Assembly (NCBI GenBank): GCA_900469615.1
Contig: UBYA01000002.1
Location: forward strand, 348,773 to 392,191
Source: Hyphomicrobiales bacterium
GTDB lineage: Bacteria; Pseudomonadota; Alphaproteobacteria; Rhizobiales; Rhizobiaceae
Length of the DNA: 43,419 nt
Direction: 5' to 3'
Both the position numbers and the translations under genes were made by a program. The notes below the pieces were generated by a model, which had not been told where the DNA came from, searched no databases, and saw nothing but the letters and a program-made list of their open reading frames with translations. Shown here piece after piece: positions 1,204 to 16,355 of the stretch. How positions within the stretch are numbered: position 1 is the stretch's first letter; each line of letters begins with the position of its first letter.

Positions 1204-1207
1204 GCGT

Positions 1208-1269: not shown

Positions 1270-1324
1270 CTATTCAGCGAGTCCCGGCAATGGCCGGTGG
1301 TTTGAACAACAGGGAGAAATCGAC

Positions 1325-1519: not shown

Positions 1520-1544
1520 CGCCCTCGGTCACACCCCAGTCACC

Positions 1545-1574: not shown

Positions 1575-1579
1575 ATCTA

Positions 1580-2038
1580 TTACTCTCTTTCATATCCGAC
1601 AGCGCCAAGCGTGCGAAGCATATGCGATTCCTCCGACCAATAAGGCTTTTCGTTGCGCTCGACGTTTAGCTTACTATTGCGCCAGTTGCGGACCGCATCT
1701 TCGAAATCCTCAAGATCTCGGCCATCGTCCGAATACAGCCAGCAACTCGACAACCATAGCAGCTCTAGCCCAATCGCTGCGATCTCGGCGGCGGTGAATT
1801 CTGGCTTCTCGTTGCGTGCCTCATGGGCGTTGTCATACTTCGCAAACTTGATGCGAGCTCCCAAGGCTTCATTCGAGGCCATGGAGATTTTGAAACGATC
1901 ATCAAATGTGCTTAGAAAGATTCTAAATCCTTGCTTCTCGAAGACTGGATTAAAAATCGGTTTTGGCTCGCTATCACCTTTAAGCCTTTTGCGTCTCTCC
2001 AACAGGATAGCTTTCACGAGATTTTGTAGTTTCCCCAT
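1580..2038 (-). CDS. Hypothetical protein
   Basis: A 152-residue protein of unknown family. The N-terminal 25 residues are basic, the middle is mixed, and the C-terminal half has a W/C-rich helix (LLWLSSCWLYSDDG) and several acidic residues. There is no signal peptide and no true membrane helix. AGGGGCG precedes the ATG. The gene is convergent with the small plus-strand genes and shares a terminator region with them. The body is less GC-rich than the transport genes to its right, which fits an accessory origin. Confidence 0.6.
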   Translation of the reverse strand: MGKLQNLVKAILLERRKRLKGDSEPKPIFNPVFEKQGFRIFLSTFDDRFKISMASNEALGARIKFAKYDNAHEARNEKPEFTAAEIAAIGLELLWLSSCWLYSDDGRDLEDFEDAVRNWRNSKLNVERNEKPYWSEESHMLRTLGAVGYERE

Positions 2039-2176
2039 CGACTTACGCCCCTAAGTGATTTTGCCCTCCGGAGAACCTATCTCCCGGCTACAAAACCCAC
2101 AATAAAGCTTGCTATAAAACTGGCGAAAAAGTCCTCGTAACATATTGATATTACACACTTTAATTTTTTTTGAGCG

Positions 2177-2320
2177 TTTCAGAAAATCTCCACCGAAGAG
2201 GTATCGCAGATACCACTCTTTTACGCGCCCAATACCAACGCCTATTCGACAAAGCTGAAGGGTATGAAGCTGACATCTGCGCTGCAATGGACGCTAGAGG
2301 ACGCAACGATCACCAAATAG
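2177..2320 (+). pseudogene. 3' remnant of a dipeptide-type substrate-binding protein
   Basis: Translation from 2177 to the TAG at 2318-2320 gives 47 residues that align without gaps to the C-terminus of the intact binding protein at 12595-14127, with 30 of 47 identical (shared segments include VSQIPL and the final T-K). An in-frame TGA at 2171 and a T-run mark the left break, so roughly 460 codons of the gene are gone. The remnant sits directly ahead of the permease genes, where the binding-protein gene of such operons belongs. The unrelated DNA to its left presumably replaced the 5' part of the gene and its promoter. Confidence 0.85.
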
Positions 2321-2384
2321 ATAGATGGACACCAGATGGCGCCGCCACCGGGCCGCGCCATCTTTCTTCTTCCGGAGAGCTATA

Positions 2385-3323
2385 TTGACCTTCCTGTCAC
2401 TCATCGTCAGGCGACTGTTGCAACTTTTTGCCGTTATGTTCGGCATCAGTGTAGTGACTTTCGTTCTGCTACATCTTGCGCCGGGTGATCCGGCACGTCT
2501 CCTGGCAGGGGATCGCGCCAGTCCGGAGACGCTCGCGGCCATTCGCGCCCAATATGGTCTCGATCTGCCGCTTTGGCAGCAATATTTTGCCTATCTCCTC
2601 AATCTTGCGAAAGGCGATATCGGTCTGTCGCTACGCTTTCAGCGGCCTGTGATCGAGTTGATTGGGCAATTTATGTGGCCCACCCTGTTTCTGACGGGCT
2701 ATGTAGTCGTGCTTGCCGTTCCGCCAACCGTGGTGCTGGCCATAGCAAGCGCGCGCCGGCCAGGCGGGTTTGCGGACCAGCTTATCCGCCTTCTCGGCAT
2801 CATGGGTCTGACGATTCCCGTCTTCTGGCTCGGCCTCATGATGTCGCGCTTTTTCGGCGTCTCGCTTGGCTGGCTGCCGGTATCAGGATACGGCGATTCC
2901 TTCGTGGACCACCTGTATCACATGCTCTTGCCGGCGATCTCCACTTCGCTCTGGCTAATTCCGGTGCTGACGCAGAGCCTCAGGGCAGCGTTGATCCAGA
3001 AGACAACAGCGGATTTTGTCACCGCGGCGCGTGCGCAGGGGGCGAACGAGCGGGAAATTTTCTGGCGAACGATCCTACCGAATGCCGTGCTGCCAACGAT
3101 CAACCTGCTCGGCGTGATGGTCGCCTATTTGATCGGCGGGGCAATCATTGTGGAAACCGTCTATGCCATACCGGGGCTCGGTTCCCTGATGGTCGGCGCC
3201 CTGCTCGGACGGGATTACTATGTCGTGCAGGGGCTGACGCTGGTCTTCGCATTCGCCACTGTCCTCATAACGCTCGCCGTTGATCTCCTGTCGGCGTCCA
3301 TCGATCCACGCATCCGGCTGTAA
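2385..3323 (+). CDS. Peptide/nickel-type ABC transporter permease (DppB-like)
   Basis: A 312-residue inner-membrane permease with the layout of the DppB/OppB family: an N-terminal membrane helix, the H-L-A-P-G-D-P motif at about residue 31, five further helices, and a cytoplasmic EAA-type loop (about 205-225, A-R-A-Q-G) that contacts the ATPase. I choose the TTG at 2385 because GGAGAG lies 8 bases upstream and the protein then begins at the usual point (MTFLSLIVRRLL). The frame is open from 2325. It is first in a tight operon with a second permease and a double ATPase. The substrate class is peptides, nickel or related amines. Confidence 0.9.
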   Translation: MTFLSLIVRRLLQLFAVMFGISVVTFVLLHLAPGDPARLLAGDRASPETLAAIRAQYGLDLPLWQQYFAYLLNLAKGDIGLSLRFQRPVIELIGQFMWPTLFLTGYVVVLAVPPTVVLAIASARRPGGFADQLIRLLGIMGLTIPVFWLGLMMSRFFGVSLGWLPVSGYGDSFVDHLYHMLLPAISTSLWLIPVLTQSLRAALIQKTTADFVTAARAQGANEREIFWRTILPNAVLPTINLLGVMVAYLIGGAIIVETVYAIPGLGSLMVGALLGRDYYVVQGLTLVFAFATVLITLAVDLLSASIDPRIRL

Positions 3324-3332
3324 GGTTTAACA

Positions 3333-4184
3333 ATGTCAAACATTCCTATTTCGGGCGTGGCCAGAACGGCTTTCTTTGCCTGGTCTCCGACGATGATTAT
3401 CGCTGTCGTCATATTGGCAGGATGGTTCGTTGTCGCGCTAACCGCTCCTTTCATAGCTCCTTACGATCCGGATGCTATCGATATCGCCAATATGCTGACG
3501 GGTCCGAGTGCTGCGCACTGGTTCGGCACGGACCAGGTCGGGCGCGATATCTTCTCGCGGGTCCTTTATGCGGCACAAGTCGATCTTCTCCTCTGCGTTC
3601 TCGGCGTATTGCCGCCGCTTATCATCGGTACTTTCGTCGGGCTTCTCAGTGGCTACTTCGGAGGGATCATCGATTCGATCTTCATGCGCATCTACGATCT
3701 GACTGTGGCTTTCCCTTTCTTCGTACTCGTTCTTGCCATTGTCGGCGTGATTGGTCCCGGACTTGTTAATTTTATCATCGCACTGACCGTGGTTGGCTGG
3801 GTCAGTTATGCTCGGTTGGTCAGGGCCGAGGTTCTGACAGTGCGTGAAAGCGAATATATCCGCGCCGCGGAATGCCTCGGTTATCCCAAGCGCGCGATAC
3901 TCCTTCGTCATGTTCTGCCCAATGCCATTGGTCCGGTCATTGCATATGCGGTGAGCGACGCAGTTCTCGTGATGCTTGCCGGCGCGAGCTTCGGCTATCT
4001 CGGCATGGGTGCGCAACCTCCCACCGCCGAATGGGGAGTCATCATTGCAGATGGCCAGGCCTTCATTCAGCAAGCATGGTGGATCTGCTTCTTCCCCGGC
4101 CTCGCAGCCATCTCGCTTGGGCTCGGCTTCGCGTTTCTCGGAGACGGTTTGGGCCACCTGCAACGACGGGAGGTGACTGTATGA
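3333..4184 (+). CDS. Peptide/nickel-type ABC transporter permease (DppC-like)
   Basis: A 283-residue partner permease. It has the DppC-type start (one helix, then I-A-P-Y-D-P-D and F-G-T-D-Q-V-G-R-D), further membrane helices, and the coupling loop E-Y-I-R-A-A-E-C-L-G near residues 175-185. It starts 9 bases after the first permease and its stop overlaps the ATPase start (ATGA), so the three transport genes are translationally linked. Together they would form the membrane channel of the importer. Confidence 0.92.
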   Translation: MSNIPISGVARTAFFAWSPTMIIAVVILAGWFVVALTAPFIAPYDPDAIDIANMLTGPSAAHWFGTDQVGRDIFSRVLYAAQVDLLLCVLGVLPPLIIGTFVGLLSGYFGGIIDSIFMRIYDLTVAFPFFVLVLAIVGVIGPGLVNFIIALTVVGWVSYARLVRAEVLTVRESEYIRAAECLGYPKRAILLRHVLPNAIGPVIAYAVSDAVLVMLAGASFGYLGMGAQPPTAEWGVIIADGQAFIQQAWWICFFPGLAAISLGLGFAFLGDGLGHLQRREVTV

Positions 4185-5836
4185 CCGGCCGTATCGACAC
4201 CGCGCAGCCTTTGCTGGAGGTCGCAGACCTGACCATTGCCTTCGGTGCGTTCAAGGCCGTTAAGGGCGTATCCTTCCATGTCAACGCCGGCGAGATTTTG
4301 GGGATCGTCGGCGAGAGCGGTTCGGGAAAATCGCTGACCTGTCGAGCGCTGATGGGCATTCTGCCGCGCTTGGCGAATGCGACCGGCTCGGTGCGGCTCG
4401 CCGGAGACAATCTGCTCGACCTTACCGAGGCGAAGTGGTGTGCTCTGCGTGGCAGCGAGATTGGAATGATCTTCCAAAACCCCGCGTCTCATCTCGATCC
4501 GTTACGCCGCATCGGCGCGCAAGTGGCGGCGCCCATGAAACGTCATCTCGGCCTGTCGCAACGCGCGGCGGAGGAAAGGACGGTTCGCCTGCTTGAAGAC
4601 GTGGGAATCCGCGATGCCGCGAAAAGAGCCCGCAGCTATCCTCACGAGTTTTCCGGAGGGATGAAGCAGCGTGCGATGATCGCTGCGGCCATCGGCTGCA
4701 ACCCGAAACTGCTGATCGCCGACGAGCCGACCACAGCGCTGGACGTGACGGTTCAATCCCGTATCCTGAAGCTGTTGCGCGACCTCAACAGGGATCGGGG
4801 TCTTTCCGTCATCCTGATTTCCCATGACCTTGCCGCCGTCGCCGCCACCTGCACGCGTGTCATCGTCATGCGCAACGGCGAAATAGTCGAGGAAGGGGCG
4901 ACCGCCGACGTCATCAGCCGTCCCCAGCACGAATATACCAAGCTACTGCTCGCCTCGCAGCCGAATGACTGGAGCAAAGCTTCGGCCGACCCTTCACCCT
5001 CTCTCGCGGCGCCGTTACTCAGTGTCGAAAAGCTGGGCGTCTCCTTCGCTGGGAAGGGTAGCATATTCTCTTCACGCGAAGCCAGGGCGCCGTTCCGCGC
5101 TCTTGAGGGCATCGATCTTCAGATCGCGCCCGGCGAAACCGTTGGTGTAGTTGGGGAAAGCGGATCGGGTAAGAGCACCCTGGCACGCGCGATCGTGCGT
5201 CAGATCCAGCCGAGCGCCGGTCGGGTCCGCTTCGATGGAGAGGACATCCACAAGCTGCAAGGCGGAGCGCTGTTGGCGTTTCGGCGGCGCGTCCAGATGG
5301 TGTTCCAAAATCCGTACGATTCTCTCAACCCCCGCATGACGGCTCGCGACGCCGTCGCGGAGCCCATCTGGCGGCACGGTCTCGCGGATCGGCGCACGGC
5401 GTTGGCCCGGGCCGATGCGCTCCTGGACAGCGTGGAGCTGGCAGCGACCCTGCGCGAGCGCCGGCCCCGGCAACTCTCCGGCGGCCAATGCCAGCGCGTG
5501 GGACTGGCGCGCGCGCTGGCTCTGGAGCCGGAATTGTTGATTGCCGATGAAATCACGTCGGCGCTCGACGTGACCACGCAGGCCCAGATCCTGGAGCTGT
5601 TGAAGCGACTGCAGCGCGAGCGCCAGCTCGCTCTGTTCTATATCTCTCATGACCTCGGCGTGGTGAACAGTATCTGCCAGCGGGTCTACGTTTTCAAAAC
5701 CGGCCGGATTGTGGAAAGCGGCCCTGTAAGTCAGGTGCTGAGCCGACCGCAGGACCCCTATACCCAGGAACTGATCGGCTCGATTACCCATCTCAAGACA
5801 GCAGCAGAACAGGAGCATGCCCATGCGTCTCGATGA
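4181..5836 (+). CDS. Fused double ATP-binding subunit (DppD-DppF type)
   Basis: A 551-residue protein with two complete ABC ATPase domains in one chain. The first has Walker A GESGSGKS at 44-51 and signature F-S-G-G-M at about 158. The second has Walker A near 325 and signature L-S-G-G-Q near 432. Each domain ends with the oligopeptide-type C-terminal extension. Usually these are separate DppD and DppF genes; the fusion resembles YejF or GsiA. The start overlaps the preceding permease and the end overlaps the first amidase by 14 bases, so uptake and hydrolysis genes are transcribed together. Confidence 0.93.
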   Translation: MTGRIDTAQPLLEVADLTIAFGAFKAVKGVSFHVNAGEILGIVGESGSGKSLTCRALMGILPRLANATGSVRLAGDNLLDLTEAKWCALRGSEIGMIFQNPASHLDPLRRIGAQVAAPMKRHLGLSQRAAEERTVRLLEDVGIRDAAKRARSYPHEFSGGMKQRAMIAAAIGCNPKLLIADEPTTALDVTVQSRILKLLRDLNRDRGLSVILISHDLAAVAATCTRVIVMRNGEIVEEGATADVISRPQHEYTKLLLASQPNDWSKASADPSPSLAAPLLSVEKLGVSFAGKGSIFSSREARAPFRALEGIDLQIAPGETVGVVGESGSGKSTLARAIVRQIQPSAGRVRFDGEDIHKLQGGALLAFRRRVQMVFQNPYDSLNPRMTARDAVAEPIWRHGLADRRTALARADALLDSVELAATLRERRPRQLSGGQCQRVGLARALALEPELLIADEITSALDVTTQAQILELLKRLQRERQLALFYISHDLGVVNSICQRVYVFKTGRIVESGPVSQVLSRPQDPYTQELIGSITHLKTAAEQEHAHASR

Positions 5837-7283
5837 ATATGTAACTTATGACGGGATTGGCCTGGCAGAGCTTTTGGCAAAGGGAGAAATAACGCCGAAG
5901 GAGCTTGGTGGCTGCGTCGTCGATGCGGTGGCAGCAGTGAATCCCGTGCTCAATGCGGTCGTCGAACTCTATCCGGATGCACTGGATGCTTTGCCGCAGA
6001 CCCGCGGCGCCGGCTCGTTTTACGGCATTCCGACGTTGACGAAGGACTTTCCCGTGGAGGCAGGCAGGCCCGGAGAATGCGGCAGCAAGCTGGCGAAAGG
6101 TTTTCGGGCGCTCCGGGATACCGTCGCCTGGCAACGCCTCAAGGCTGCGGGCCTTGTCAATGTCGGCCGCACCACCACCTCGGAATTCGGGGTGGCGGCC
6201 GCCACGGAGACATCTCTTTACGGCAACACTGCCAACCCCTGGGATATCCGGCGAGGAGTTTCCGGTTCCAGCGGGGGGGCGGCGGCAGCGGTCGCTGCCG
6301 GCCTCGTCCCCTTTGCCCATGGCGGCGACGGCGGCGGTTCCATCCGCAATCCGGCCTCCTTCTGCGGATTGATCGGCCTCAAACCTTCCCGCGGACGCGT
6401 CACGGGGTCGCCGGGAGCGAATGCACCGCTGTTCGGACTTGCCACCGCATTCATGCTGACAAAATCGGTCCGTGACACGGCTCTGCTGCTCGACGAGTGC
6501 CATGGGCCGGATGCCGGCGACGGATACGAAATCTGCGCACCGCACACCCCCTACAGCGAAGCAATTCGGCGCCCTCCCGAAGCTCTGCGCATTGGCTTTT
6601 GTGTCAAGTCATGGTCGCAAACCACCTGTGATCCGGAAATTGCGGAGTCCGTCCTGAAAACCGCCCGGCTGCTCGCCTCGTACGGCCACGAGGTGGAGGA
6701 GGCGGCGCCCGAGTTCGACTATGCGGCATTCCTGGAGGCGCAGAAAGTTATCTGGGGCGCCGACCTGGCTGCGGGCTTGCCGCAGGTAGCGCAGCAGATG
6801 CAACGGGAGATCGGGTCAGAAAACCTCAGTGCCACCGTTCTTGCGGTCTATCATTTCGGCAAGGATCTTTGCGCTTCGCGGCTCGTGAACGCATTCAAGG
6901 TTTACGACGAGATGACGCGGCGGGTCGGACGCTTCTTTAATCGCTACGATCTTTTGCTGACGCCGACGAGCTGCATCCAGCCGGAGATTCTCGGCACTTA
7001 TGATCCGATGCGCTCTGGCATTGACGTCGACACCGTCTTTGCGGACATGGAGTTGAAGGAGACCTTTACGGCTCTGTTCAACGGTACGGGCCAGCCCGCG
7101 ATATCCCTGCCGACCGGGACTTCGTCGGCGGGTCTGCCGATTGGCAGCCAGTTGGTCGCAAGGTTCGGACGCGAAGACCTGCTGCTTGGGGTGGCGAGGC
7201 AGCTGGAAGAGAACTTCGACCGAAATAACGGCGTTTGGGGACAAGGTCTCCCCCCGGTCTTTGCCGGACGGCCCCGCGCTTAG
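5823..7283 (+). CDS. Amidase (amidase signature family), copy 1
   Basis: A 486-residue cytoplasmic amidase. The Ser-cisSer-Lys catalytic set is visible as K74 (TLTKD), S149 (GSSGG) and S173 ([11 protein letters not shown]), with family-typical spacing. Such enzymes hydrolyse a C-N amide bond to acid plus amine or ammonia; the family does not reveal the substrate. The gene begins inside the end of the ATPase gene, so its substrate is likely what the transporter imports. A second amidase follows with 128 of the first 180 residues identical in gapless alignment, which shows a tandem duplication. Confidence 0.92.
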   Translation: MRLDEYVTYDGIGLAELLAKGEITPKELGGCVVDAVAAVNPVLNAVVELYPDALDALPQTRGAGSFYGIPTLTKDFPVEAGRPGECGSKLAKGFRALRDTVAWQRLKAAGLVNVGRTTTSEFGVAAATETSLYGNTANPWDIRRGVSGSSGGAAAAVAAGLVPFAHGGDGGGSIRNPASFCGLIGLKPSRGRVTGSPGANAPLFGLATAFMLTKSVRDTALLLDECHGPDAGDGYEICAPHTPYSEAIRRPPEALRIGFCVKSWSQTTCDPEIAESVLKTARLLASYGHEVEEAAPEFDYAAFLEAQKVIWGADLAAGLPQVAQQMQREIGSENLSATVLAVYHFGKDLCASRLVNAFKVYDEMTRRVGRFFNRYDLLLTPTSCIQPEILGTYDPMRSGIDVDTVFADMELKETFTALFNGTGQPAISLPTGTSSAGLPIGSQLVARFGREDLLLGVARQLEENFDRNNGVWGQGLPPVFAGRPRA

Positions 7284-7344
7284 GAGTTCGACAGGAGACA
7301 TGCGCCTCGACAATTCCATGTATCCGTGAAACTGGACCTTAGCG

Positions 7345-8796
7345 ATGCGACTTGATGAATATGCCGCGCAGGATGGCATCGGCCTCGCCCGTCTCCTCCG
7401 GGAAGGGGAAATAACGCCGCGTGATCTCGGGCAGTGCGTGGTGCAGGCAATCGAATCCGTCAACCCGGCACTCAATGCCGTTGTGGAGGTGTTTGCCGAT
7501 GCTCTCGATCGGTTGACGAACCAAAGGGGGGCAGGTCCGTTTTACGGCATTCCAACGCTGATCAAGGACCTGCCGATCGAGGCCGGACGGCACGCGGAAT
7601 TCGGCAGCCGCCTGATGAAGGGCTTTCGGGCACAGCATGATGCGGTATACTGGCAGCGGCTGCGCGAAAGCGGCTTGATCAGCGTAGGGCGCACGACGAC
7701 ATCCGAGTTCGCCATCCCCGCGGCCACGGAAACGCTGCTGTATGGCGCAACCCGCAACCCATGGGATGTAAAGCGAGGGGTAGCGGGCTCCAGTGCTGGC
7801 GCTGCCGCGGCCGTAGCTGCTGGCATAGTGCCCTTCGCTCAAGGCAGCGACGGTGGTGGATCAATCCGCAATCCCGCATCGTTTTGCGGCGTCATCGGCC
7901 TCAAGCCCTCCCGCGGTCGCGTGACAGGTTCCCCACATGCAAACGCTCCGCGCTTCGGCCTGGGGACCGGCTTCATGCTTACGCGATCGGTTCGCGACAC
8001 AGCCGCCCTTCTGGACGTCTGCCACGGCCCCGATGCGGGCGATGGCTATGAGATCACGCGTCCCTCCGAGGCTTATGCCGGGACCATGCATCGTTCGCCA
8101 AAGGAATTGCGTATCGCCGTGTGCACGCGCTCCTGGTCCGGAACGCCTGTCGAGCAGGATGTTCTGGACACCGCACGGCTTACGGCGGACCGGCTGAGCA
8201 ATCTCGGCCATCATATCGAGAACGCCTCGCCGGATTTCGATTATTCCGCTTTCCTTCATGCGCAAAAGATCATCTGGGCAGCAGGAGCTGCCGCTGACTT
8301 GCCCGTTCTGGCGAAATTAGCCGGTGCCCCATTGGATGAAGATACCCTCGGGCCTTCCGTTCATGCTGTTTATCGCTTTGGATGCACATTGCGCGCTTCC
8401 CAGCTTAGGGAAGCGCTGGAGGTCTACGATCACATCACAAGGCAGGTCGGGCGTTTCATGCAACGGTACGATCTCCTGCTAACGCCAACAAGTGCGATTG
8501 CGCCGGAGCTGATCGGCACCTACGACCCCAACAGGCCAGGTCTGGATATCGACGACGTTTTCGCGGACCTCGAGCCCAAAGAAACCTTTACCGCCCTTTT
8601 TAACGGCACCGGTCAACCGGCGATCTCGTTGCCTCTTGGCCGTAGCGGCAATGGCCTTCCGATCGGAATGCAATTTGTCGGTCGTTTCGGGCGTGACGAT
8701 CTTTTGCTTGCGATCGCGCGCCAACTGGAGGAACAACTGGAGGGTAAGCCGGGTATATGGGGGCAGGGATTGCCTGATATCTACGCCGGCCACTAA
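7345..8796 (+). CDS. Amidase (amidase signature family), copy 2
   Basis: A 483-residue paralogue of the preceding amidase, with the same catalytic positions K74, S149 and S173 and no insertions over the first 180 residues. The motif after the cis-serine is GSSAG rather than GSSGG. The middle (about 230-300) diverges most, the region expected to shape the substrate pocket, so the two may act on related but different amides. It is separated from copy 1 by 61 bases, and the RpiR regulator follows after 14. Confidence 0.92.
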
Positions 8797-8810
8797 CAGG
8801 AGGACTGCGA

Positions 8811-9743
8811 GTGGCAAAGCCGCGAAACGGGGAAAAGAAAAAGCGTGCCATTGAAAATGGCAAGAAAGTCGATATCGAAGCGCTCCTGCGGGCGCATATT
8901 GCGACCGCGACGCCTTCCGAGCAGAGCGTCGCTGCCTTCATGCTCGAAAATTTGCAGATGTTGTCGTTTGAGACGGGCGGCAGTATCGCCAAGGCGGTTG
9001 GCGTAAGCGAAATGACGGTGCTGCGCGTCGCGCGGGGCCTTGGCTTCCAGGGCTTCCGCGACCTGAAGAGCAAGTTGCGCAGCGCGGTTGAAAAAGAAGG
9101 GGACCTCGACGATTACACATCCCGCTTCAAAGTGCGGGATAAGCGGCATGAGGTATTGCAGGAAAGCCTGCGTCTGGAACTTGATGCGATTGTCAAAGCC
9201 TATGCGCTCGCAACGACCGAATTATGGGACGATGCGACCAGCGCGCTGGCGAGAACGCGAACGATCTATGTCGTCGGATTTCAGGCGATCAAAGGCCTCG
9301 CAATGGACTTTGCCAGTCGCTTGCTGTGGACGCGCCCAAACGTGATTTTCGTCGATAGTGCAAGCGGTACTTATGGGGAAATCATCGCGGCCGACCCGGC
9401 GCACAGCCTGGTCGTGCTCATTGACGCCGCAAACTATGCCACACGCAGCATAAAGCTGGCGCAGCGTCTGAAAGACATCGGCATGCCTTTGATCATCGTA
9501 ACGGACATGTTTAGCCACTGGGGCTTTGCCTATACCGAGTTTGTTTTCGAAGCCCACGCCCATGTCCAGACCTATTGGGATTCTTCGGCGTCGATAAACG
9601 TTGTGCTCAATCTGCTCATCAATACCGTGGCCATGAAGCTCGGCTCAAAGGCGACAAAGCATTGCGAGGTCCTTACGAAACTGATGGCGGACTTCGACGA
9701 ATTCGTAAGCGTTCCAACTCTCAACCATAAACAGGAAACTTGA
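8811..9743 (+). CDS. MurR/RpiR-family transcriptional regulator
   Basis: A 310-residue regulator starting at a GTG with AGGAGG 8 bases upstream. The N-terminal half contains the RpiR helix-turn-helix (about residues 30-100: S-I-A-K-A-V-G-V-S-E-M-T-V-L-R). The C-terminal half is a SIS domain (about 130-280) with the fold that binds phosphosugars in this family. It lies in line with the transport and amidase genes and probably controls them, as repressor or activator. Many rhizobial RpiR proteins in Dpp/amidase clusters sense non-sugar catabolites, so the ligand cannot be read off. Confidence 0.9.
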   Translation: MAKPRNGEKKKRAIENGKKVDIEALLRAHIATATPSEQSVAAFMLENLQMLSFETGGSIAKAVGVSEMTVLRVARGLGFQGFRDLKSKLRSAVEKEGDLDDYTSRFKVRDKRHEVLQESLRLELDAIVKAYALATTELWDDATSALARTRTIYVVGFQAIKGLAMDFASRLLWTRPNVIFVDSASGTYGEIIAADPAHSLVVLIDAANYATRSIKLAQRLKDIGMPLIIVTDMFSHWGFAYTEFVFEAHAHVQTYWDSSASINVVLNLLINTVAMKLGSKATKHCEVLTKLMADFDEFVSVPTLNHKQET

Positions 9744-9744
9744 T

Positions 9745-10119
9745 ATGACTATCGATGAAGCACTGGAAGCCGATCGCAGACGGCTGGATGCCTGCCTGGC
9801 TGCCGATATTCCTGTCCTGGAAGAGCTTATGGCCGAAGATTGCCTTTATATCCACACCGCCGGCAATATCGATTCGAAGTCCGAGTTCATCGAAAAAGTC
9901 AAAACGGGCATGCTTCGCTACATGCGCATCGGAAACAACATCGAGCGGTCGGGGGCATGCGGAGAGACCGTCGCCATTGCCGGTATTCTGGAGATGGATC
10001 TCTACAGGGGTGACGTCCCGGCCTCGATTCGTATTCGTTATTGCTGCACATGGGTAAGCACGGCTTCAGGTCCAAGAATGCTGACCTGGCAATCGACGCC
10101 GCTTGCCAACCATAAATGA
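9745..10119 (+). CDS. NTF2-like (SnoaL/DUF4440-type) protein
   Basis: A 124-residue cytoplasmic protein with the cone-shaped NTF2-like pattern: an N-terminal helix pair (E-A-L-E-A-D-R-R-R-L-D-A), the L-M-A-E-D-C-L-Y-I-H-T-A-G segment and several beta strands. It begins one base after the RpiR stop, so it is co-expressed. Proteins of this fold act as isomerases, cyclases, hydratases or plain ligand binders. A role in processing the product of the amidases is possible but cannot be shown from sequence. Confidence 0.8.
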   Translation: MTIDEALEADRRRLDACLAADIPVLEELMAEDCLYIHTAGNIDSKSEFIEKVKTGMLRYMRIGNNIERSGACGETVAIAGILEMDLYRGDVPASIRIRYCCTWVSTASGPRMLTWQSTPLANHK

Positions 10120-10126
10120 GTTGAGA

Positions 10127-10690
10127 ATGGCAGGGAAATCCACGTCCGTCGACATCGGGGGCAGGTTGCGTCATTTGCGCATGCAGCACAACCTTTCCCA
10201 GCGCGAACTTGCCAAACGCACCGGTGTTACCAATTCAACGATCTCGTTGATCGAATCGAATGCGTCCAATCCATCCGTCGGTGCGTTGAAACGGATACTG
10301 GATGGAATTCCGATCGGGATGGCAGAGTTTTTCGCGTTCGAGCCGGAACGGCCAGCGAGCGCTTTTTACCGGTCCGATGAATTGGTCGAGATTGGCAAAG
10401 GAGCAATTTCGTATCGGCAGGTCGGCAAGACCCTCTTTGGCCGCAGCCTTCAGATCGTCAGGGAATGCTATCAGCCCGGGGCAGATACAGGCAAGGTATC
10501 GTTAGTCCACGATGGCGAGGAAGGCGGCATCGTCCTCTCGGGTCGTCTGGATGTGACCGTGGGCGACGAACGCCGCATCCTGGGGCCGGGGGATGCATAT
10601 TATTTCGAAAGTCGCCGCCCGCACCGTTTCCGCTGCGTCGGTTCGCTACCCTGCGAAGTCGTAAGCGCCTGCACCCCTCCGACATTCTAG
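10127..10690 (+). CDS. XRE-cupin transcriptional regulator (PuuR-like)
   Basis: A 187-residue regulator with an N-terminal XRE helix-turn-helix (about 8-65; L-S-Q-R-E-L-A-K-R-T-G-V-T-N-S-T-I-S) and a C-terminal cupin domain (about 110-185; ending G-D-A-Y-Y-F-E-S-R-R-P-H-R-F). This arrangement is that of PuuR, which represses putrescine use in enteric bacteria, and of many regulators of amine and amino-acid catabolism. It is the last gene of the plus-strand run and starts 7 bases after the NTF2-like gene. An acylpolyamine-type deacetylase lies 3.5 kb away, giving a weak hint that amines are involved. Confidence 0.88.
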   Translation: MAGKSTSVDIGGRLRHLRMQHNLSQRELAKRTGVTNSTISLIESNASNPSVGALKRILDGIPIGMAEFFAFEPERPASAFYRSDELVEIGKGAISYRQVGKTLFGRSLQIVRECYQPGADTGKVSLVHDGEEGGIVLSGRLDVTVGDERRILGPGDAYYFESRRPHRFRCVGSLPCEVVSACTPPTF

Positions 10691-11184
10691 CGAAGAGCGC
10701 GGAAAGCACACGGCTTTCTCTGTGATATCCGCGCCGGTCCATGCGGCGTGCTTCTCCAAACGACATCCGGTCTGCCGGCGCTTGCGCGCCGAGGCAGACC
10801 GAGAGCGATGGGGTTCCCATCAGCCTTCTTGGCAAAATGCCTGCACATTGTCCGCGAAAGCGTTCATTCCGTCGAGCGTCGCTTGCATCGGAGGCGGTCT
10901 GCCTGTTGCCCGCACCGGTATTGCGGGCAACAGGGAAGAAAACCTCTTCCAGGCAGAAGTGCCGATTCTGCGGTTGAGCGATCGCCGCCATGGCCGGGCG
11001 ATAATCATAAAGGATCACCGCCCGTAGGGTCTCCCCCGTCCGTCAACGACATTGTTACGGAGTTTGGAGAGTGCGCGGAAAATCTTCGCCCGTGCAACAA
11101 CGTGAGTCGCCAGGGCTTTTCCTGGAATTGCTCTTGAAAACTCAAGCGGTTAACCGCCTGTCCGAGGAAATTGGCGTGCCAACA
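10691..11184. other. Intergenic stretch without a supported gene
   Basis: No convincing coding region is seen. Open frames exist on both strands (for example 10820-11008 minus, ending DNVQAFCQEG) but none has a ribosome site, a family pattern or consistent codon use; the minus frame could be the tail of a lost gene. The left end holds an inverted repeat, GCGCGGA (10697-10703) with TCCGCGC (10728-10734), just after the XRE-cupin gene. No U-run follows it, so it is a weak terminator candidate or RNA-stabilising hairpin. The right end holds the repeat at 11110-11157. Confidence 0.5.
11110..11157. repeat. Palindrome-rich repeat, rhizobial intergenic type
   Basis: Three small inverted repeats follow one another: CCAGG/CCTGG (11110-11125), CTTGA/TCAAG (11133-11146) and the perfect palindrome GCGGTTAACCGC (11146-11157). 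The segment CTTTTCCTGGAATTGCTC is like one arm of the short palindromic intergenic repeats found in many copies in rhizobial genomes. It lies just past the end of the minus-strand secreted NTF2-like gene, where such repeats often act as terminators or mRNA stabilisers. The family match is from memory, not from a search. Confidence 0.4.
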
Positions 11185-11655
11185 TCAGAACATGGTGTTG
11201 GTATTGGCCGATTTCTCGGGCACTTTCTGGATAACGTCCCAATGCTCGACGATTTTGCCGTTTGCGACGCGAAAGATGTCAACGACGGCCGAGCCCGGAT
11301 CGGTCGGTCCGCTTGTCGCATGGACATGGAGATAAACGAGATCGCCATCCGTCGCGCTGCGAACGATCTGCGATTTGCGGGCGGGATTATCCTGAAAGGC
11401 CTTGGTGAAATAGCCAACGAAGGGGGCTTTGCCGTCAGGAACGTTCGGGTTGTGTTGCTTGTAGTCGTCAGCGACCACTTGGGCGGCTTCGGCGACGTCA
11501 TGCTGATTGAAAAACTTGTCGTAAAACGAGACGACAAGCGCTCGGTTCGATTCTTCCATGCTCAGGTTGCGCTCGGCGGCGAATACGCTGCAGACATTGA
11601 GCGATGCGGCCATTGCCGCAGAAATTGCAATCATGTGAGGGAAGGACATTTTCAT
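11185..11655 (-). CDS. Secreted NTF2-like (SnoaL-type) protein
   Basis: A 156-residue protein with a Sec signal peptide (first 26 residues, cleavage after VFA) followed by an NTF2-like/SnoaL domain. The conserved pattern Y-D-K-F-F-N-Q-H-D and the ending V-D-I-F-R-V-A-N-G-K-I-V-E-H-W-D-V-I-Q are typical of the predicted ester-cyclase-like subgroup. It acts in the periplasm if exported. It is transcribed opposite to the flanking clusters, and the long spacer at 11656-12594 lies upstream of it. The role is unknown. Confidence 0.82.
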   Translation of the reverse strand: MKMSFPHMIAISAAMAASLNVCSVFAAERNLSMEESNRALVVSFYDKFFNQHDVAEAAQVVADDYKQHNPNVPDGKAPFVGYFTKAFQDNPARKSQIVRSATDGDLVYLHVHATSGPTDPGSAVVDIFRVANGKIVEHWDVIQKVPEKSANTNTMF

Positions 11656-12533
11656 GGATACCTCTTTCCTTTTCGGATCATGACCGCTTTTTAGGAGCGG
11701 ATCGGTTTCGTTGTTGCTGCATGATTTCCATGTGAGAAATGCGGTCCCGCGTGTTTCAAGTCAGAGTTGGCACGCGGCTCCCCGACGTCGGTCTTGAGCT
11801 CATGGGACATCGCATCTCCAACGCCGCACAGGCGTTCGCCATCGGGCGAAGAGTGCGGCGGTATTGCACGGTCAGCGGCAAGAGTTATGCGAGTTTTTCG
11901 ATAAATTCCCGTCTATATATTTGCAAAATAGATATATAGATTGTCGCGCATGACATCATTCCGCTCCAAAGATTGTTATGGCGGAAAGATGTGCCGGCCT
12001 GCCGAAGAATTGAAAAGCATGAACTCATATCAGCTGTTTATAAGTATCATGCTGATGTCTTCGCGACGGTGCGCTCTTGCGGGAAATTATGGCAGGTCCT
12101 GGCCTCCTTTCAAATTATCGCAATGATTTGCTTTGGCTGCGTGACCATATATCGTAATTATCGATCATTCGCGATAGGGTCGATTTTCACATCTATGTGT
12201 TGCGTGGTCGGAAATGCCGATTTCTCCGCGGAAGGGCCTCTTTGTGGCGCGAGTCGCGACTGCCGGTATTTGGCGATGGGGGCCGTCTGGAAAGCGAATA
12301 TCCGCCTGCGCCACGGCGTTCTTGGGAGCATTCATCCCAGCGCAACCGGAAACGTGCAATCCGGCCCGAGATTCAGCGTGCAGACGGCGAAAGATGCCGG
12401 CCTCCGCACGTCGGCGGGATTGGAGGCTGCCCAGCACTTTCGAACGTTCCACCGAGGCTTCTGTCTGAACATTTTATTTTTCAATGAGATAGAATGATCT
12501 TTCCATTTATATGTTGTATTTCCACCAATATTG
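11656..12533. other. Long intergenic region with scattered palindromes
   Basis: About 880 bases without a gene I can support. The first part is the leader of the minus-strand secreted protein. Around 11900-12180 the DNA is AT-rich with an inverted repeat (11912-11940). Between 12200 and 12470 it becomes GC-rich again and several frames stay open on both strands, but none has a start site or a recognisable family. That part may be debris of a lost gene. No transposase or terminal repeats were found. Confidence 0.5.
11912..11940. promoter_or_regulatory. 9-bp perfect inverted repeat (operator candidate)
   Basis: TCTATATAT (11912-11920) and ATATATAGA (11932-11940) form a perfect inverted repeat around an 11-base centre that contains TTTGCAAA overlapping the left arm. 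It lies about 260 bp upstream of the minus-strand secreted protein and about 650 bp upstream of the binding-protein gene. Symmetry and spacing suit a dimeric regulator or a cruciform. Which gene it serves is unclear. Confidence 0.4.
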
Positions 12534-12564
12534 TTGACTAATGTTTTAAAATCAACATTATGAT
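12534..12564 (+). promoter_or_regulatory. Promoter with overlapping inverted repeat
   Basis: TTGACT (12534-12539) can serve as -35 and CATTAT or TATGAT (12556-12564) as -10. Overlapping them is the perfect inverted repeat TAATGTT (12539-12545) / AACATTA (12554-12560) with an 8-base centre. A repressor bound there would block RNA polymerase. The transcript would begin near 12570 and meet the strong GGGGAGGAG ribosome site before the ATG at 12595. The RpiR or XRE-cupin regulators of the cluster are natural candidates, by inference. Confidence 0.5.
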
Positions 12565-12594
12565 GGACACCAAACACTGGGGAGGAGTGTAAGC

Positions 12595-14127
12595 ATGGGT
12601 GTCTGCAGGATTTTTCGCGCTTGCGCGTTGCGCAGCTCGGCATTGTTGGCGATCGTGTTCAGCACGACGGCAGCGGCAATCGCCGCTGATACGATAACCC
12701 TCGCGACGCCTAATCCGATCACCACCCTCGATCCGATGCGATCGACAAGCTCGGGGAATATCGAGGTCTATTTTCAGCTTTACTCGGGCCTAGTGAGGCG
12801 GAATTCCCAAACCGGCGAGCTTGAGCCGGCTCTGGCGGATCGTTGGGAGGTCTCACCGGATGGTTTGACCTATACGCTTCATTTGCGTGACGCCCGGTTC
12901 TCGGACGGCTCGCCGATCACCGCCGAGGACGTGGCTTTCAGCTTGAACCGCGTCCATAGCGATAAGCAATCAGTGTATCCCGCCGGATTGAGCGCGGTCG
13001 ACACAGTGACCGCTGCAGACCAGAAGACCGTTCTGATCAAGTTGAAGTGGGCGCGCTCGTCGTTTCTTCAGAACCTTGCCGCCTTCAACATGGGTATCGT
13101 GTCGAAGTCCGATGTCGAAAAGCAGGGAGACAAGGCTTTCACCAGCGATCCGGTTACGTCTGGCCCATATATAGTGAAGCAATGGAAGCCCAATGAGGGG
13201 ATAGAGCTGCGGCCCAATCCGCATTACTGGCGCGCCGGCCACCCGAAATCCGATGCCACCATTCATTTCTTGGAAACGTCCTCGGCCGAGACGCGTATCG
13301 CCATGTTGCGAGCAGGCACTGTGGACGCGGTGAGGTCGGTCCCATGGGCGAATATCGCGGAACTCAAGAAACTGCCTTCGATCGTCGTCCGGATGGAATC
13401 ATCCGGTGTCATCTACGAAGTGCTGCTCAACCATAAACGCGAACCTTTTTCAGACATGAAGGCTCGCCAGGCGGCAGCCTACGCCATCGACAACAAAGCA
13501 ATGACCGCCGCGCTGACATATGGTTATGCCCGGCCGGCCAATACCACCTTGCCGGATGGCTTTGATTTCCATGACGATGCGTATCCCGGCATTCCGCAGG
13601 ATATCCAGAAGGCAAAGCAGCTTTTGACCGAGTCCGGGATGCAGGGGCACGAGGTGAAGATCCTCGCATTGCCCGATGCGACAGGGCAGCAGACGGCTCT
13701 GCTTTTGCAGGCGCAATGGCAGGCCATCGGCCTGAAGCCAACGATCGTGAATGTCGATAGCGGTGCATGGTGGGATGCGACCGGCAAGGCGGACTATGAT
13801 GCGGCCGTCTCCTGGTGGTACCAGGAGTCGCCTGATCCCGATATCGGGGTTCGCTGGTCCGTATGCGGCTCCTGTAAGTCGAATGCCTTTAACACCTTCT
13901 ACAAGAATCCCAAGGTGGACGACTTGATCGAAGAAGGTGCCAGGGAGGCCGATCCCGCCAAGCGCCTGGCGATCTATAAGGAGATTCAGAAGATCACCAC
14001 ACGAGAGGTCTCCCAGATCCCGCTCTACTACGCGCCGAATGCGGTGGCATACTCCAAGCGAGTGGAAGGTCTGAAACTCACGCCTTCGCTGACATGGACG
14101 TTTGAAGATACGACCCTCACCAAATAG
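12595..14127 (+). CDS. Peptide/amine ABC transporter substrate-binding protein
   Basis: A 510-residue periplasmic binding protein of the DppA/OppA class (family 5 solute-binding proteins). A signal peptide covers about residues 1-31 (cleavage near AIA-ADT). The mature protein opens with D-T-I-T-L-A-T-P-N-P-I-T-T-L-D-P-M and has the conserved L-E-P-A-L-A-D-R-W-E-V-S-P-D-G and F-S-D-G-S-P-I-T-A-E-D-V motifs. GGGGAGGAG precedes the ATG. Its C-terminus is 64% identical to the remnant at 2177-2320, so it is a paralogue of the lost binding protein and may now feed the permeases encoded 9 kb upstream. Confidence 0.93.
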   Translation: MGVCRIFRACALRSSALLAIVFSTTAAAIAADTITLATPNPITTLDPMRSTSSGNIEVYFQLYSGLVRRNSQTGELEPALADRWEVSPDGLTYTLHLRDARFSDGSPITAEDVAFSLNRVHSDKQSVYPAGLSAVDTVTAADQKTVLIKLKWARSSFLQNLAAFNMGIVSKSDVEKQGDKAFTSDPVTSGPYIVKQWKPNEGIELRPNPHYWRAGHPKSDATIHFLETSSAETRIAMLRAGTVDAVRSVPWANIAELKKLPSIVVRMESSGVIYEVLLNHKREPFSDMKARQAAAYAIDNKAMTAALTYGYARPANTTLPDGFDFHDDAYPGIPQDIQKAKQLLTESGMQGHEVKILALPDATGQQTALLLQAQWQAIGLKPTIVNVDSGAWWDATGKADYDAAVSWWYQESPDPDIGVRWSVCGSCKSNAFNTFYKNPKVDDLIEEGAREADPAKRLAIYKEIQKITTREVSQIPLYYAPNAVAYSKRVEGLKLTPSLTWTFEDTTLTK

Positions 14128-14133
14128 TTCCTT

Positions 14134-14152
14134 TGCGGCTTGAAAGGCCGCA
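14134..14152 (+). terminator. Hairpin after the binding-protein gene
   Basis: TGCGGC (14134-14139) and GCCGCA (14147-14152) form a perfect 6-bp stem with a 7-base loop. No U-run follows, so it is more likely an mRNA-stabilising or partial attenuating hairpin that lowers expression of the deacetylase relative to the binding protein than a full terminator. Confidence 0.4.
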
Positions 14153-14240
14153 GCGCCAAGTCTCCAAAACCTCGCCTCGGTGTGACGGTGTTTGGTCGGC
14201 AGCGATAGTCGGCATTCGATTCAAAAATGCGAGGTGGTTT

Positions 14241-15347
14241 ATGAAGACGGGATTTCTCTGGCACGAATATTTTGCATGGCATTCGTTTGGAACGGTCTCC
14301 GGATCGATTCCGGCCGGAGGCTTTGTGGAGCCTGGAGCCCCTTTCGAAAACGAACAGACGAAGCGCAGATTGCGGAATCTGCTGGAAGTCAGCGGCCTGC
14401 TTGACGACCTGAGCATTCTGCCCACGCGGCTTGCCACGGATGAAGAACTTCTCCGCGTTCATACGGTGGATTATCTGGAAAAGCTGAAGCGGCTGAGCAA
14501 TGCGGGCATCGGCGATGCCGGCAGGGGAGCCTTGGTCGGCAAGGGCTCGTTCGAAATTGCCCAACGCGCTGCGGGTGCCTGTATCGTCGCTGCCGACGCT
14601 GTATATGATCGTGTTGTTCGCAACGCCTATGTCTTGTGCCGTCCTCCGGGACACCATGCCGAACGCGATTGCGGGATTGGCTTCTGCCTTCTCGCGAATG
14701 CATCGATCGCGACGGAGCATTTGCGCAAGGTCCGCGGTGTGAAGCGTATTGCGCTGGTCGACTGGGATGTCCATCATGGCAATGGGGCGCAGTCAATCTT
14801 CTACGACGATCCGGACGTTCTGACGATTTCCATTCACCAGGATCGCCTGTTTCGGTCCGGGTCAATTGAAGAAAGAGGCGTCGGAGACGGATTGGGAGCC
14901 TCCCTCAATATTCCACTGCCCGCAGGCTCGGGCCATGAAGCCTATGTGGCGGCGATTGAGCGGGTGGTGGTTCCGGCTCTCACGCGCTTCCAGCCTGAAA
15001 TGATTATCGTGCCGTCGGGTTTTGATGCCAGCGTGTTCGATCCCCTCGGCCGCCAGATGGCGGGTTCGGAGACATTCCGAATGATGACCCGCCTGCTGAT
15101 GACCGCGGCAGACCGGCTTTGCGAGGGTCGGCTGATGATGACCCACGAGGGCGGCTATTCGGAAACGTATGTCCCCTGGTGCGGATTGGCCGTTCTCGAG
15201 GAAATGTCCGGCATTAAAACAGAAGCGCAGGATCCTTATCTCGGTTGGTTCGGCCTAATTGGCGGACACGAGCTCAAGCCGCATGAGAACGAGGTTCTGA
15301 TCCAGGCTGCGGCTCTTGTCGATCAGATACCAAGGCCCGGCAAGTAG
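14241..15347 (+). CDS. Histone-deacetylase-like amidohydrolase
   Basis: A 368-residue zinc hydrolase of the arginase/deacetylase superfamily. The active site is complete: H138-H139 in R-P-P-G-H-H, zinc ligands D176 and H178 in V-D-W-D-V-H-H-G-N-G, and D262 in S-G-F-D-A-S. Bacterial members remove acetyl or other acyl groups from polyamines or similar amines. The sequence looks like the class II-type bacterial group. It lies 113 bases after the binding-protein gene, so imported compounds may be deacylated here. The true substrate is not evident. Confidence 0.9.
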   Translation: MKTGFLWHEYFAWHSFGTVSGSIPAGGFVEPGAPFENEQTKRRLRNLLEVSGLLDDLSILPTRLATDEELLRVHTVDYLEKLKRLSNAGIGDAGRGALVGKGSFEIAQRAAGACIVAADAVYDRVVRNAYVLCRPPGHHAERDCGIGFCLLANASIATEHLRKVRGVKRIALVDWDVHHGNGAQSIFYDDPDVLTISIHQDRLFRSGSIEERGVGDGLGASLNIPLPAGSGHEAYVAAIERVVVPALTRFQPEMIIVPSGFDASVFDPLGRQMAGSETFRMMTRLLMTAADRLCEGRLMMTHEGGYSETYVPWCGLAVLEEMSGIKTEAQDPYLGWFGLIGGHELKPHENEVLIQAAALVDQIPRPGK

Positions 15348-15449
15348 AAGTCCGTCACGCTGTTGGAGGACTGCCGAGCTAGGCCTCTGCGTTGCATGGC
15401 AGGCTCGAGCCGGCAGTTGGTCTCATCTATCCGTTAACTGAGTTCGAGA

Positions 15450-16355
15450 ATGCCGAAGCCGTCTATTTCAGGCACTATCCCGCCGCAGGCGCAGCACCAG
15501 CGGTGGGCCATGACGATGCTGATCGCCGGAGGCATCGCTATCGGCAGTTCCCCGATATTTGTACGCTTGTCTGAAGTAGGGCCCATCGCCACCAGTTTCT
15601 GGCGCCTGGCATTGGCCATGTTCCCTCTTTTCATGTTTGGTGCCGGTGAACGCCGGAAGCTCCAGGAGCGCTCGCCGTTCAACCTGATAAATTGCCTTCA
15701 ACTCATTTTGCCGGGAATTTTCATCGCTGCCGATCTCGGCGCTTGGCATTTCTCGCTGCATTTGACGTCCGTGGCGAATGCGACCTTGCTTATGAATCTG
15801 GCACCGATTTTCGTCAGCATTGGAGCATGGCTCCTTTTCAGGATGCGAATTAGCGGCAGGCTCATTGCCGGACTGGCAATCGCCATCGCCGGTGTCGTTG
15901 TTCTGAAAGGTGGCGTGGGTGAGATAGTGCACGAGCAGTCGGCGGGCGATGGCATCGCGCTTCTCTCAGCCGTCTTCTACGCGGGATATATTCTCTTGGT
16001 TGGACGCCTGCGCAGCCGCTTTTCGACCAGATGCATCATGCTGTGGAGCACTGCGACCGCAGCTGCCATCTCCCTTCCAGTGGCCTATTTCATGGAAGGT
16101 AGAATCTTGCCGATGACAATCCACGGCTGGCTCATACTCGCCGCGCTGGCATGGATGACGCATGCTGCCGGCCAAAGCATGATCGCCTATGCGCTCGCTT
16201 ATTTGGCGCCGTCGTTTTCATCGCTCACGCTTATGCTTCAGCCGGTTGTGGCAGCGCTTCTGGCTTGGGTTTTCCTGACCGAACCCCTTGGCCTCATGCA
16301 GGCGATCGGCGGAATGATTGTCATATTCGGAATATTGATTGCTCGCGGGGACTAA
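15450..16355 (+). CDS. DMT-family (EamA) membrane transporter
   Basis: A 301-residue inner-membrane protein with about ten hydrophobic helices arranged as two EamA repeats (roughly 18-150 and 165-298). The repeat ends A-G-V-V-V-L-K-G-G and I-V-I-F-G-I-L-I-A-R are typical. Relatives export amino acids, metabolites or drugs. It follows the deacetylase by 102 bases on the same strand and could remove a product or toxic intermediate of the cluster, though DMT genes are too widespread for this to be firm. It is convergent with the regulator at 16472. Confidence 0.88.
   Translation: MPKPSISGTIPPQAQHQRWAMTMLIAGGIAIGSSPIFVRLSEVGPIATSFWRLALAMFPLFMFGAGERRKLQERSPFNLINCLQLILPGIFIAADLGAWHFSLHLTSVANATLLMNLAPIFVSIGAWLLFRMRISGRLIAGLAIAIAGVVVLKGGVGEIVHEQSAGDGIALLSAVFYAGYILLVGRLRSRFSTRCIMLWSTATAAAISLPVAYFMEGRILPMTIHGWLILAALAWMTHAAGQSMIAYALAYLAPSFSSLTLMLQPVVAALLAWVFLTEPLGLMQAIGGMIVIFGILIARGD

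What the first reader, a model, noticed from the sequence alone, without database searches (positions are those of the whole stretch)
2177..16355. Amide/acyl-amine uptake and hydrolysis cluster with two amidases and an HDAC-like deacetylase
One block combines a Dpp-type importer, two duplicated amidases co-transcribed with it, an RpiR regulator, two NTF2-like proteins (one cytoplasmic, one secreted), a PuuR-like XRE-cupin regulator, a zinc acyl-amine deacetylase and a DMT exporter. Each family is known, but this assembly is not a pathway that I can name. The pairing of a PuuR-like regulator with an acylpolyamine-type deacetylase suggests N-acylated amines or polyamine conjugates; that part is inference.
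Basis: partly seen in the sequence, partly recalled or inferred. Interest (0 to 1): 0.7.

Follow-up and report, generated by a model that had tools for sequence, protein, structure and literature searches.

The report
Prophage-split rhizobial nylonase-like import operon
This Rhizobium block is an altered copy of a gene set, conserved in related soil bacteria, that pairs an importer with relatives of the enzymes that cut nylon fragments; a virus genome sits inside one of its genes, and the set likely takes up and splits small amide compounds whose natural identity is unknown.

Summary
In 28 related loci the importer's binding protein, two permeases and fused ATPase go with a serine hydrolase nearest to NylB (27 of 28; the other contig ends), mostly with an RpiR regulator (24) and an amidase nearest to NylA (22, though most loci were found by that amidase). 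NylA and NylB are nylon-oligomer hydrolases. The window is an odd derivative. A 17.8-kb prophage sits in the operon's own binding-protein gene; its end is the window's first 2.2 kb. No NylB-like gene is in the assembly. A second, non-sister amidase is present. A second binding-protein gene, followed by the HDAC-like gene, carries the operon's promoter element, whose core occurs twice in this genome: before the two binding-protein genes. So a shared control site ties the HDAC block to the importer, though they are unlinked in relatives. The HDAC is nearest to propanil hydrolase, not to polyamine deacetylases, so the acylpolyamine reading is not supported. Predicted: RpiR-controlled uptake and cleavage of small amides, the zinc enzyme possibly standing in for NylB. 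Substrate, prophage switching and replacement are inference.

The parts
1..2177 (.). right end of a 17.8-kb prophage (C28:333193-350949) inserted in the binding-protein gene
   Evidence: 14-bp direct repeat at both ends and in-frame empty site; integrase, portal, head protein, terminases, connectors and tape measure in the part left of the window. The three ORFs of this stretch that were scanned match no PHROG
2178..2191 (+). right copy of the 14-bp attachment repeat
   Evidence: left copy at C28:333193
2178..2320 (+). 3' remnant of the operon's own binding-protein gene (SBP1)
   Evidence: 59% identical to SBP2 residues 460-510; the upstream part, about 470 codons, is at C28:331797-333206
2325..3323 (+). 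permease 1 (Dpp/Nik-type); TTG at 2385 would give the 312-aa length seen in relatives
   Evidence: PF00528; alternative starts; relatives 70-83% identical
3333..4184 (+). permease 2
   Evidence: PF00528
4181..5836 (+). fused double ABC ATPase
   Evidence: PF00005 twice; start at 4181 read
5817..7283 (+). amidase 1, NylA-like, in the position of the relatives' amidase
   Evidence: PF01425; best PDB match NylA 3a2p, 247 bits; Lys-Ser-Ser triad
7345..8796 (+). amidase 2, NylA-like, separate lineage
   Evidence: best PDB match NylA 3a2p, 261 bits; tree
8811..9743 (+). RpiR-type regulator, predicted to read the shared promoter element
   Evidence: PF01418; element in 22 of 22 RpiR-containing operons scored and 0 of 4 RpiR-less ones
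9745..10119 (+). DUF4440 NTF2-like protein, in the place of the relatives' NylB-like gene
   Evidence: PF14534; no counterpart at 40% identity in 28 loci
10127..10690 (+). XRE-cupin regulator, not PuuR by curated cut-off
   Evidence: start at 10127 read
12501..12566 (+). operon-type promoter/operator element before SBP2 (-35 TTGAC at 12534)
   Evidence: 22.8 bits with a matrix from 17 relatives; 100 Markov copies of the window reach at most -7.7; holds one of the two TTGACNNNTGTTNNNNNNNNAAC sites of the genome
12595..14127 (+). second binding protein (SBP2)
   Evidence: PF00496; best PDB match AapF 7kz8, 273 bits
14241..15347 (+). class II HDAC-like zinc amidohydrolase
   Evidence: PF00850; best PDB match propanil hydrolase 9gku, 369 bits
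15450..16355 (+). EamA/DMT-type transporter
   Evidence: PF00892

Best explanation
This block is a prophage-split Rhizobium version of a conserved operon that joins a Dpp-type importer to hydrolases nearest to the nylon-oligomer enzymes NylA and NylB, and it is predicted to import small amide-bonded compounds and cut them inside the cell. Shown: the operon order in relatives, the 14-bp repeats and in-frame empty site around the prophage, the absence of a NylB-like gene from this assembly, and the same promoter element before both binding-protein genes. Inferred: RpiR binds that element and senses a substrate or product; SBP2, made from its own copy of the promoter, serves the permeases in place of the split SBP1; the two NylA-like amidases make the first cut and the HDAC-like enzyme, downstream of SBP2, likely makes the second cut that a NylB-like enzyme would make elsewhere. 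The prophage would separate the permease-amidase-RpiR genes from their promoter, so these would be weakly expressed unless the prophage leaves or a promoter in the prophage end reads through.
For: Order in relatives: NylB-like in 27 of 28 loci (the 28th contig ends), RpiR in 24, amidase in 22. Most of the 28 were found with the amidase; of the 12 loci found with SBP2 instead, NylB-like is in 12, RpiR in 8, amidase in 6. All 22 plasmid records with an amidase of at least 60% identity also list a NylB-like gene of at least 60% about 1 kb away on the same strand. In the genus 6 of 148 genomes hold the amidase; the 5 others all hold the NylB-like gene and the window's genome does not. NylA and NylB are the best PDB matches; catalytic residues conserved in 18 of 18 amidases and 20 of 20 NylB-like proteins. 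Element: the only match in the 43-kb window is before SBP2; its core occurs twice in 6.55 Mb, before SBP1 and SBP2, the reversed pattern never; in 22 of 22 RpiR-containing and 0 of 4 RpiR-less operons scored. Prophage. No terminator-like site between SBP2 and HDAC.
Against: NylA's substrate residue Cys316 is Trp in 18 of 18 amidases and NylB's Asn266 is Asp in 20 of 20 NylB-like proteins, so 6-aminohexanoate dimers need not be the substrate; identity to NylA and NylB is roughly a third by eye. The amidase is missing from 6 of the 12 loci found without it, so it is not a constant partner. No relative links an HDAC to this operon (0 of 28), so the replacement of NylB rests on one genome. SBP1 and SBP2 elements score lower (21.2, 22.8) than relatives' (32.5-81.7). 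The core pattern was drawn up with both sites in view; only the matrix, made from relatives, is an independent test, and it was run on the window and two flanking stretches, not on the genome. The RpiR-element link may be one evolutionary contrast. The lack of a promoter-like site before permease 1 means little: shuffles gave 0.9 on average. Co-transcription of SBP2 and HDAC (113-bp gap) is not shown. The locus could simply be decaying.
Confidence: 0.55

Rival explanations
1. A decaying operon: prophage insertion cut the binding-protein gene, the NylB-like gene was lost, and the remaining permease-amidase genes have no promoter; the SBP2-HDAC-EamA unit is an independent system that merely kept an old promoter.
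For: SBP1 split, NylB-like gene absent, no promoter-like site found before permease 1 (weak: shuffles give 0.9), HDAC unlinked in 28 relatives.
Against: Permeases, ATPase, both amidases and RpiR have full-length open frames and the amidases keep their catalytic residues; SBP2 and its promoter element are kept although SBP2 is only 62-63% identical to SBP1.
Confidence: 0.25
2. One reading: uptake and deacylation of N-acylated amines such as acetylpolyamines.
For: An HDAC-family enzyme and a distantly PuuR-like XRE-cupin protein are present.
Against: HDAC nearest to propanil hydrolase, 369 bits, against 159 for the fish polyamine deacetylase HDAC10 and 123 for a bacterial acetylpolyamine aminohydrolase among the 60 of 138 matches shown; only ApaH-type enzymes deacetylated polyamines among the bacterial ones tested (PMC11532494 passages); PuuR cut-off missed.
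Confidence: 0.08
3. A signal-scavenging system like aap/pip of Pseudomonas GM79: import of an ethanolamine-derived plant signal and its cleavage.
For: The best PDB match of SBP2 is AapF, 273 bits against 174 for the next; the aap importer genes are beside peptidase genes whose loss raises the response (PMC4981722 passages).
Against: Roughly a third identity by eye; none of the genes scanned at 2325-19521 is a LuxR solo or a proline iminopeptidase. That AapF binds HEHEAA is recalled, from no call.
Confidence: 0.07

Closest known systems
nylA-nylB-opp region of Arthrobacter KI72 (plasmid pOAD2) and Agromyces KY5R
   Same: NylB-type serine hydrolase with oligopeptide permease genes in the same region; KI72 also has NylA (PMC7019077, passages)
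   Different: No NylC seen in the rhizobial operon; RpiR gene and a fixed gene order there; NylA Cys316 and NylB Asn266 not kept; the window itself lacks the NylB-like gene. pOAD2 itself was not read here.
RpiR regulator labelled 'nylB upstream ORF' in Rhizobium leguminosarum genomes (PMC6969944, one table passage)
   Same: An RpiR gene described by its position at nylB, in the same genus
   Different: Only a table label was seen; importer, amidase and promoter element are not in that passage
[quoted passage not shown]
   Same: Same enzyme family and Lys-Ser-Ser triad
   Different: Those cut cyclic dimers, lactams, acyl-homoserine lactones or linuron; no importer in the passages seen
Cluster 1b bacterial classical deacylases, propanil hydrolase PrpH and dimethoate hydrolase DmhA (PMC11532494, passages)
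   Same: Closest solved relatives of the window's HDAC-like protein, small-molecule amide hydrolases
   Different: Those act on pesticides; here the gene follows a binding-protein gene with the operon's promoter element
Phage regulatory switches (comK in Listeria, hlb in Staphylococcus; PMC6597384, passages)
   Same: Prophage inside a host gene whose empty site reads through in frame
   Different: Excision not shown; the target here is an importer gene

Membership tests
6-aminohexanoate-cyclic-dimer hydrolase (NylA) | Lys72, cis-Ser150, Ser174 triad | tested here: met
   18 of 18 amidases aligned, both window amidases included
6-aminohexanoate-cyclic-dimer hydrolase (NylA) | Cys316 for substrate specificity | tested here: not met
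   Trp in 18 of 18; role from PMC7019077 passages
6-aminohexanoate-cyclic-dimer hydrolase (NylA) | activity on the cyclic dimer | not testable with these tools
   needs an assay
6-aminohexanoate-dimer hydrolase (NylB), relatives' gene | Ser112-x-x-Lys115 and Tyr215 | tested here: met
   20 of 20 (SxxK; Lys115 and Tyr215; the Ser column printed was position 114, my wrong offset)
6-aminohexanoate-dimer hydrolase (NylB), relatives' gene | Asp181 and Asn266 | tested here: inconclusive
   Asp181 in 19 of 20, Asn266 replaced by Asp in 20 of 20
rhizobial importer-NylA-RpiR-NylB operon (defined here) | NylB-like gene after RpiR | tested here: not met
   none in the window or the flanks read or in the assembly
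rhizobial importer-NylA-RpiR-NylB operon (defined here) | order SBP-permease-permease-ATPase-amidase-RpiR | tested here: met
   met with the SBP gene split by the prophage and an extra amidase
rhizobial importer-NylA-RpiR-NylB operon (defined here) | TGTT-N8-AACA promoter element before SBP | tested here: met
   before SBP1 and SBP2, at lower scores than in relatives
acetylpolyamine amidohydrolase (ApaH, cluster 4) | closest sequence relatives are ApaH enzymes | tested here: not met
   propanil hydrolase 369 bits, ApaH-type 3men 123 bits
cluster 1b class II HDAC-like amidohydrolase | closest relatives and zinc/catalytic motifs HH, DxH, D, Y | tested here: met
   residue roles recalled
PuuR | NCBIfam cut-off 211 bits | tested here: not met
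   118.9 bits
phage regulatory switch | prophage in a host gene, direct repeats, frame restored in the empty site | tested here: met
phage regulatory switch | excision that turns the gene on | not testable with these tools
   needs PCR or reads across the empty site

The most novel reading that the evidence does not exclude
The natural counterpart of the nylon-oligomer pathway is an RpiR-controlled import operon of rhizobia; in this strain a prophage in the binding-protein gene acts as a reversible switch on it, and a zinc HDAC-type enzyme under the same promoter element has replaced the serine enzyme NylB.
Probability: 0.15. Interest if true: 0.8.

Novelty: new variant of a known kind. Interest (0 to 1): 0.6.

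Why it matters
NylA- and NylB-type enzymes are known from man-made nylon fragments; one paper calls QsdB, an acyl-homoserine lactone amidase, the first of the NylA sub-cluster involved in degrading natural compounds (passage), so the natural substrates of such enzymes are largely open. A conserved rhizobial operon that gives a NylB-like and often a NylA-like enzyme a binding protein, importer and regulator makes the question testable: the binding protein's ligand and the regulator's inducer would name the compound. This strain adds a second test, whether an HDAC-type zinc enzyme can take over the second cut, and a prophage that may gate the operon.

Tried and rejected
Recent tandem duplication of the amidases: rejected by the tree, amidase 2 with P0002/P0003 (SH-aLRT 100) and amidase 1 in the clade of the R. 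setariae amidase (99). SBP1 or SBP2 as a recent copy of the other: 62-63% identity and unresolved placement. A NylB-like remnant in the window or the two upstream stretches read: best hit 27 bits, E 0.05. HDAC linkage in relatives: the genus search found HDAC at E <= 1e-90 in 3 of 148 genomes, the window's own included, and neither of the other two is among those with the amidase. The attachment site as a conserved target: best matches to the 14-bp core have 2-5 mismatches in 15 relatives' binding-protein genes and 2 in SBP2. Hydroxamate siderophores as natural substrate: thought of from recall; the one paper search gave nothing supporting in the 8 rows listed. Prophage relatives: integrase 26-29% identical over 32-52% of its length in 7 phage records. 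Papers on a rhizobial importer-nylA-nylB operon: none in the rows listed by searches; passages of PMC4344238, PMC2964644 and PMC6969944 were seen, the last with the label 'nylB upstream ORF'. Passages of PMC7301841, PMC11879879, PMC10858056, PMC11052090 and PMC5408104 were also seen. The PNAS 2018 paper on HEHEAA is not held, so AapF's ligand is recalled. No structure was predicted. Not done: reading pOAD2 itself; reading gene order at L094-L101 beyond loci already held; a matrix scan of the whole genome; a check of the permease rows for internal stops before stop signs were stripped.
Full report
What is there. The window is C28:348773-392191 of a 6.55-Mb, 55-contig genome. Same-genus genomes include contigs with the length and match position of Rhizobium sp. 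CIAT894 (NZ_CP020949.1) and R. leguminosarum (NZ_CP016290.1) plasmids, so the host is taken as a Rhizobium. Likely starts: ATPase 4181, XRE-cupin 10127, HDAC 14241; permease 1 may start at TTG 2385, which gives the 312 aa seen in several relatives.

The importer belongs to a conserved operon. A genome scan with amidase 2 gave 16 loci, 15 from Hyphomicrobiales and one acidobacterial locus, dropped because only the amidase was found there. Order: binding protein, permease, permease, fused ATPase, amidase, RpiR, serine hydrolase. Serine hydrolase in 27 of 28 (in L010 the contig ends), RpiR in 24, amidase in 22; all seven genes in 20. Most loci were found with the amidase, so its count is biased: of the 12 loci found with SBP2, the serine hydrolase is in 12, RpiR in 8 and the amidase in 6. 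In four of the 28 (L015, L051, L067, L087) one gene appears in two tblastn pieces, which may be frameshifts. The operon is patchy: amidase in 6 of 148 same-genus and 12 of 394 family genomes; binding protein in 9 of 297 family and 4 of 397 order genomes, the window's genome counted each time, at E limits of 1e-120 to 1e-150.

What the enzymes resemble. Both window amidases have NylA, the 6-aminohexanoate-cyclic-dimer hydrolase, as best PDB match (261 and 247 bits; the next other protein for amidase 2 has 168). The serine hydrolase of L018 has NylB, the 6-aminohexanoate-dimer hydrolase, as best match (215 bits). Catalytic residues are conserved in 18 of 18 amidases and 20 of 20 serine hydrolases aligned; the substrate residues differ: NylA Cys316 is Trp in 18 of 18, NylB Asp181 is kept in 19 of 20 and Asn266 is Asp in 20 of 20. 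Their roles are given in PMC7019077, which also says that oligopeptide permease genes lie in the same region as nylB and nylC in Arthrobacter and Agromyces (passages). So these are nylonase-like enzymes whose real substrate is open. All 22 plasmid records with an amidase of at least 60% identity also list a NylB-like gene of at least 60% on the same strand about 1 kb away (my pairing of the rows); 9 more records list such a NylB-like gene without such an amidase.

How the window departs. First, the operon's own binding-protein gene is split: about 470 codons run to the repeat's end at C28:333206, where the frame goes on for a few foreign codons (477 aa in all), and the last part lies at window 2178-2320; a 14-bp direct repeat stands at each end, 17,757 bases apart, and the empty site is in frame. 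Between them lie a tyrosine integrase, portal, major head protein, head-tail connectors, both terminase subunits and a tape measure protein; the three ORFs scanned in window 1-2177 match no PHROG. Second, no NylB-like gene is in the assembly: best hit 27% and 41 bits, none at E <= 1e-100, while 8 of 148 same-genus genomes have one, among them the 5 others with the amidase. Third, the two amidases come from different branches. Fourth, SBP2, HDAC and EamA follow; no HDAC is linked to the operon in the 28 relatives.

The control element. Upstream of the relatives' binding-protein genes lies a 66-bp element with two TGTT-N8-AACA-like pairs around a TTGAC box. A matrix from 17 relatives finds it in the window only before SBP2: 22.8 bits (with a mirror on the other strand), next place elsewhere -19.0, maximum of 100 first-order Markov windows -7.7; without the -35 box, 12.3 against at most 4.4. 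The core pattern TTGACNNNTGTTNNNNNNNNAAC, drawn up with these sites in view, occurs twice in the genome, before SBP1 and SBP2, and its reversed control never. Scored with each locus left out, the element is in 22 of 22 RpiR-containing operons whose start is in view (39.8-76.8 in the 17 used for the matrix, 32.5-81.7 in five that were not) and in 0 of 4 RpiR-less operons (-32 to -49); SBP1 and SBP2 have 21.2 and 22.8. Two of the four RpiR-less operons form one clade in the binding-protein tree (the other two were not in it), so this may be one evolutionary contrast.

Mechanism proposed. RpiR would control uptake; SBP2 would serve the permeases; the amidases would make a first cut and the HDAC-like enzyme a second. 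The HDAC is nearest to propanil hydrolase (369 bits), with the polyamine deacetylase HDAC10 at 159 and a bacterial acetylpolyamine aminohydrolase at 123 (60 of 138 matches shown); in PMC11532494 propanil and dimethoate hydrolases are described as small-molecule enzymes and only ApaH-type enzymes deacetylated polyamines among the bacterial ones tested (passages). Against: no relative shows the replacement, and the prophage may have silenced the permease-amidase genes; no promoter-like site was found at 1500-2500, but shuffles average only 0.9, and the scan at 8700-16500 found no more than shuffles do, one of its four sites being the -35 box of the SBP2 element. A prophage that gates a host gene has precedents (PMC6597384 passages), but excision is untested here.

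Verdict. Its value lies in giving NylA- and NylB-like enzymes a natural setting that can be tested.

Noticed in passing
window 33769-33983: Cobalamin riboswitch, 123 bits, on the + strand just before the ORF at 34078-36417.
   Followed up: no
window 16472-23720: ScfR/RamB-like regulator divergent from carboxyl transferase, a biotin carboxylase-like ORF (not scanned) and methylmalonyl-CoA mutase, a propionyl-CoA route next to the finding.
   Followed up: partly
window 26228-30899: FecR-like protein, TonB-dependent receptor and Peripla_BP_2 protein on the minus strand.
   Followed up: no
L032:3307-17926: Compact prophage with head, connector and tail genes in under 18 kb; its integrase has only 26-29% identical relatives in the phage collection.
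   Followed up: partly
L048:2876-11211: A second Dpp-type importer gene set on the minus strand upstream of SBP1, with an amidohydrolase gene (L032:16-948, +) in between.
   Followed up: no
L054, L055, L069, L070: Sister operons with binding protein, permeases, ATPase and NylB-like enzyme but no amidase, no RpiR and no TGTT/AACA element; a GTGATC/GATCAC palindrome is seen before L054.
   Followed up: partly
L074, L092: Operons of one other genus with RpiR and NylB-like gene but no amidase.
   Followed up: partly
L073:8224-9237: Another HDAC-like gene of the same genome, 51% identical to the window's; the genome has three HDAC-family genes in all.
   Followed up: no
window 30417-30506: Odd tRNA-like call without a clear anticodon inside a protein-coding region, probably false.
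   Followed up: no
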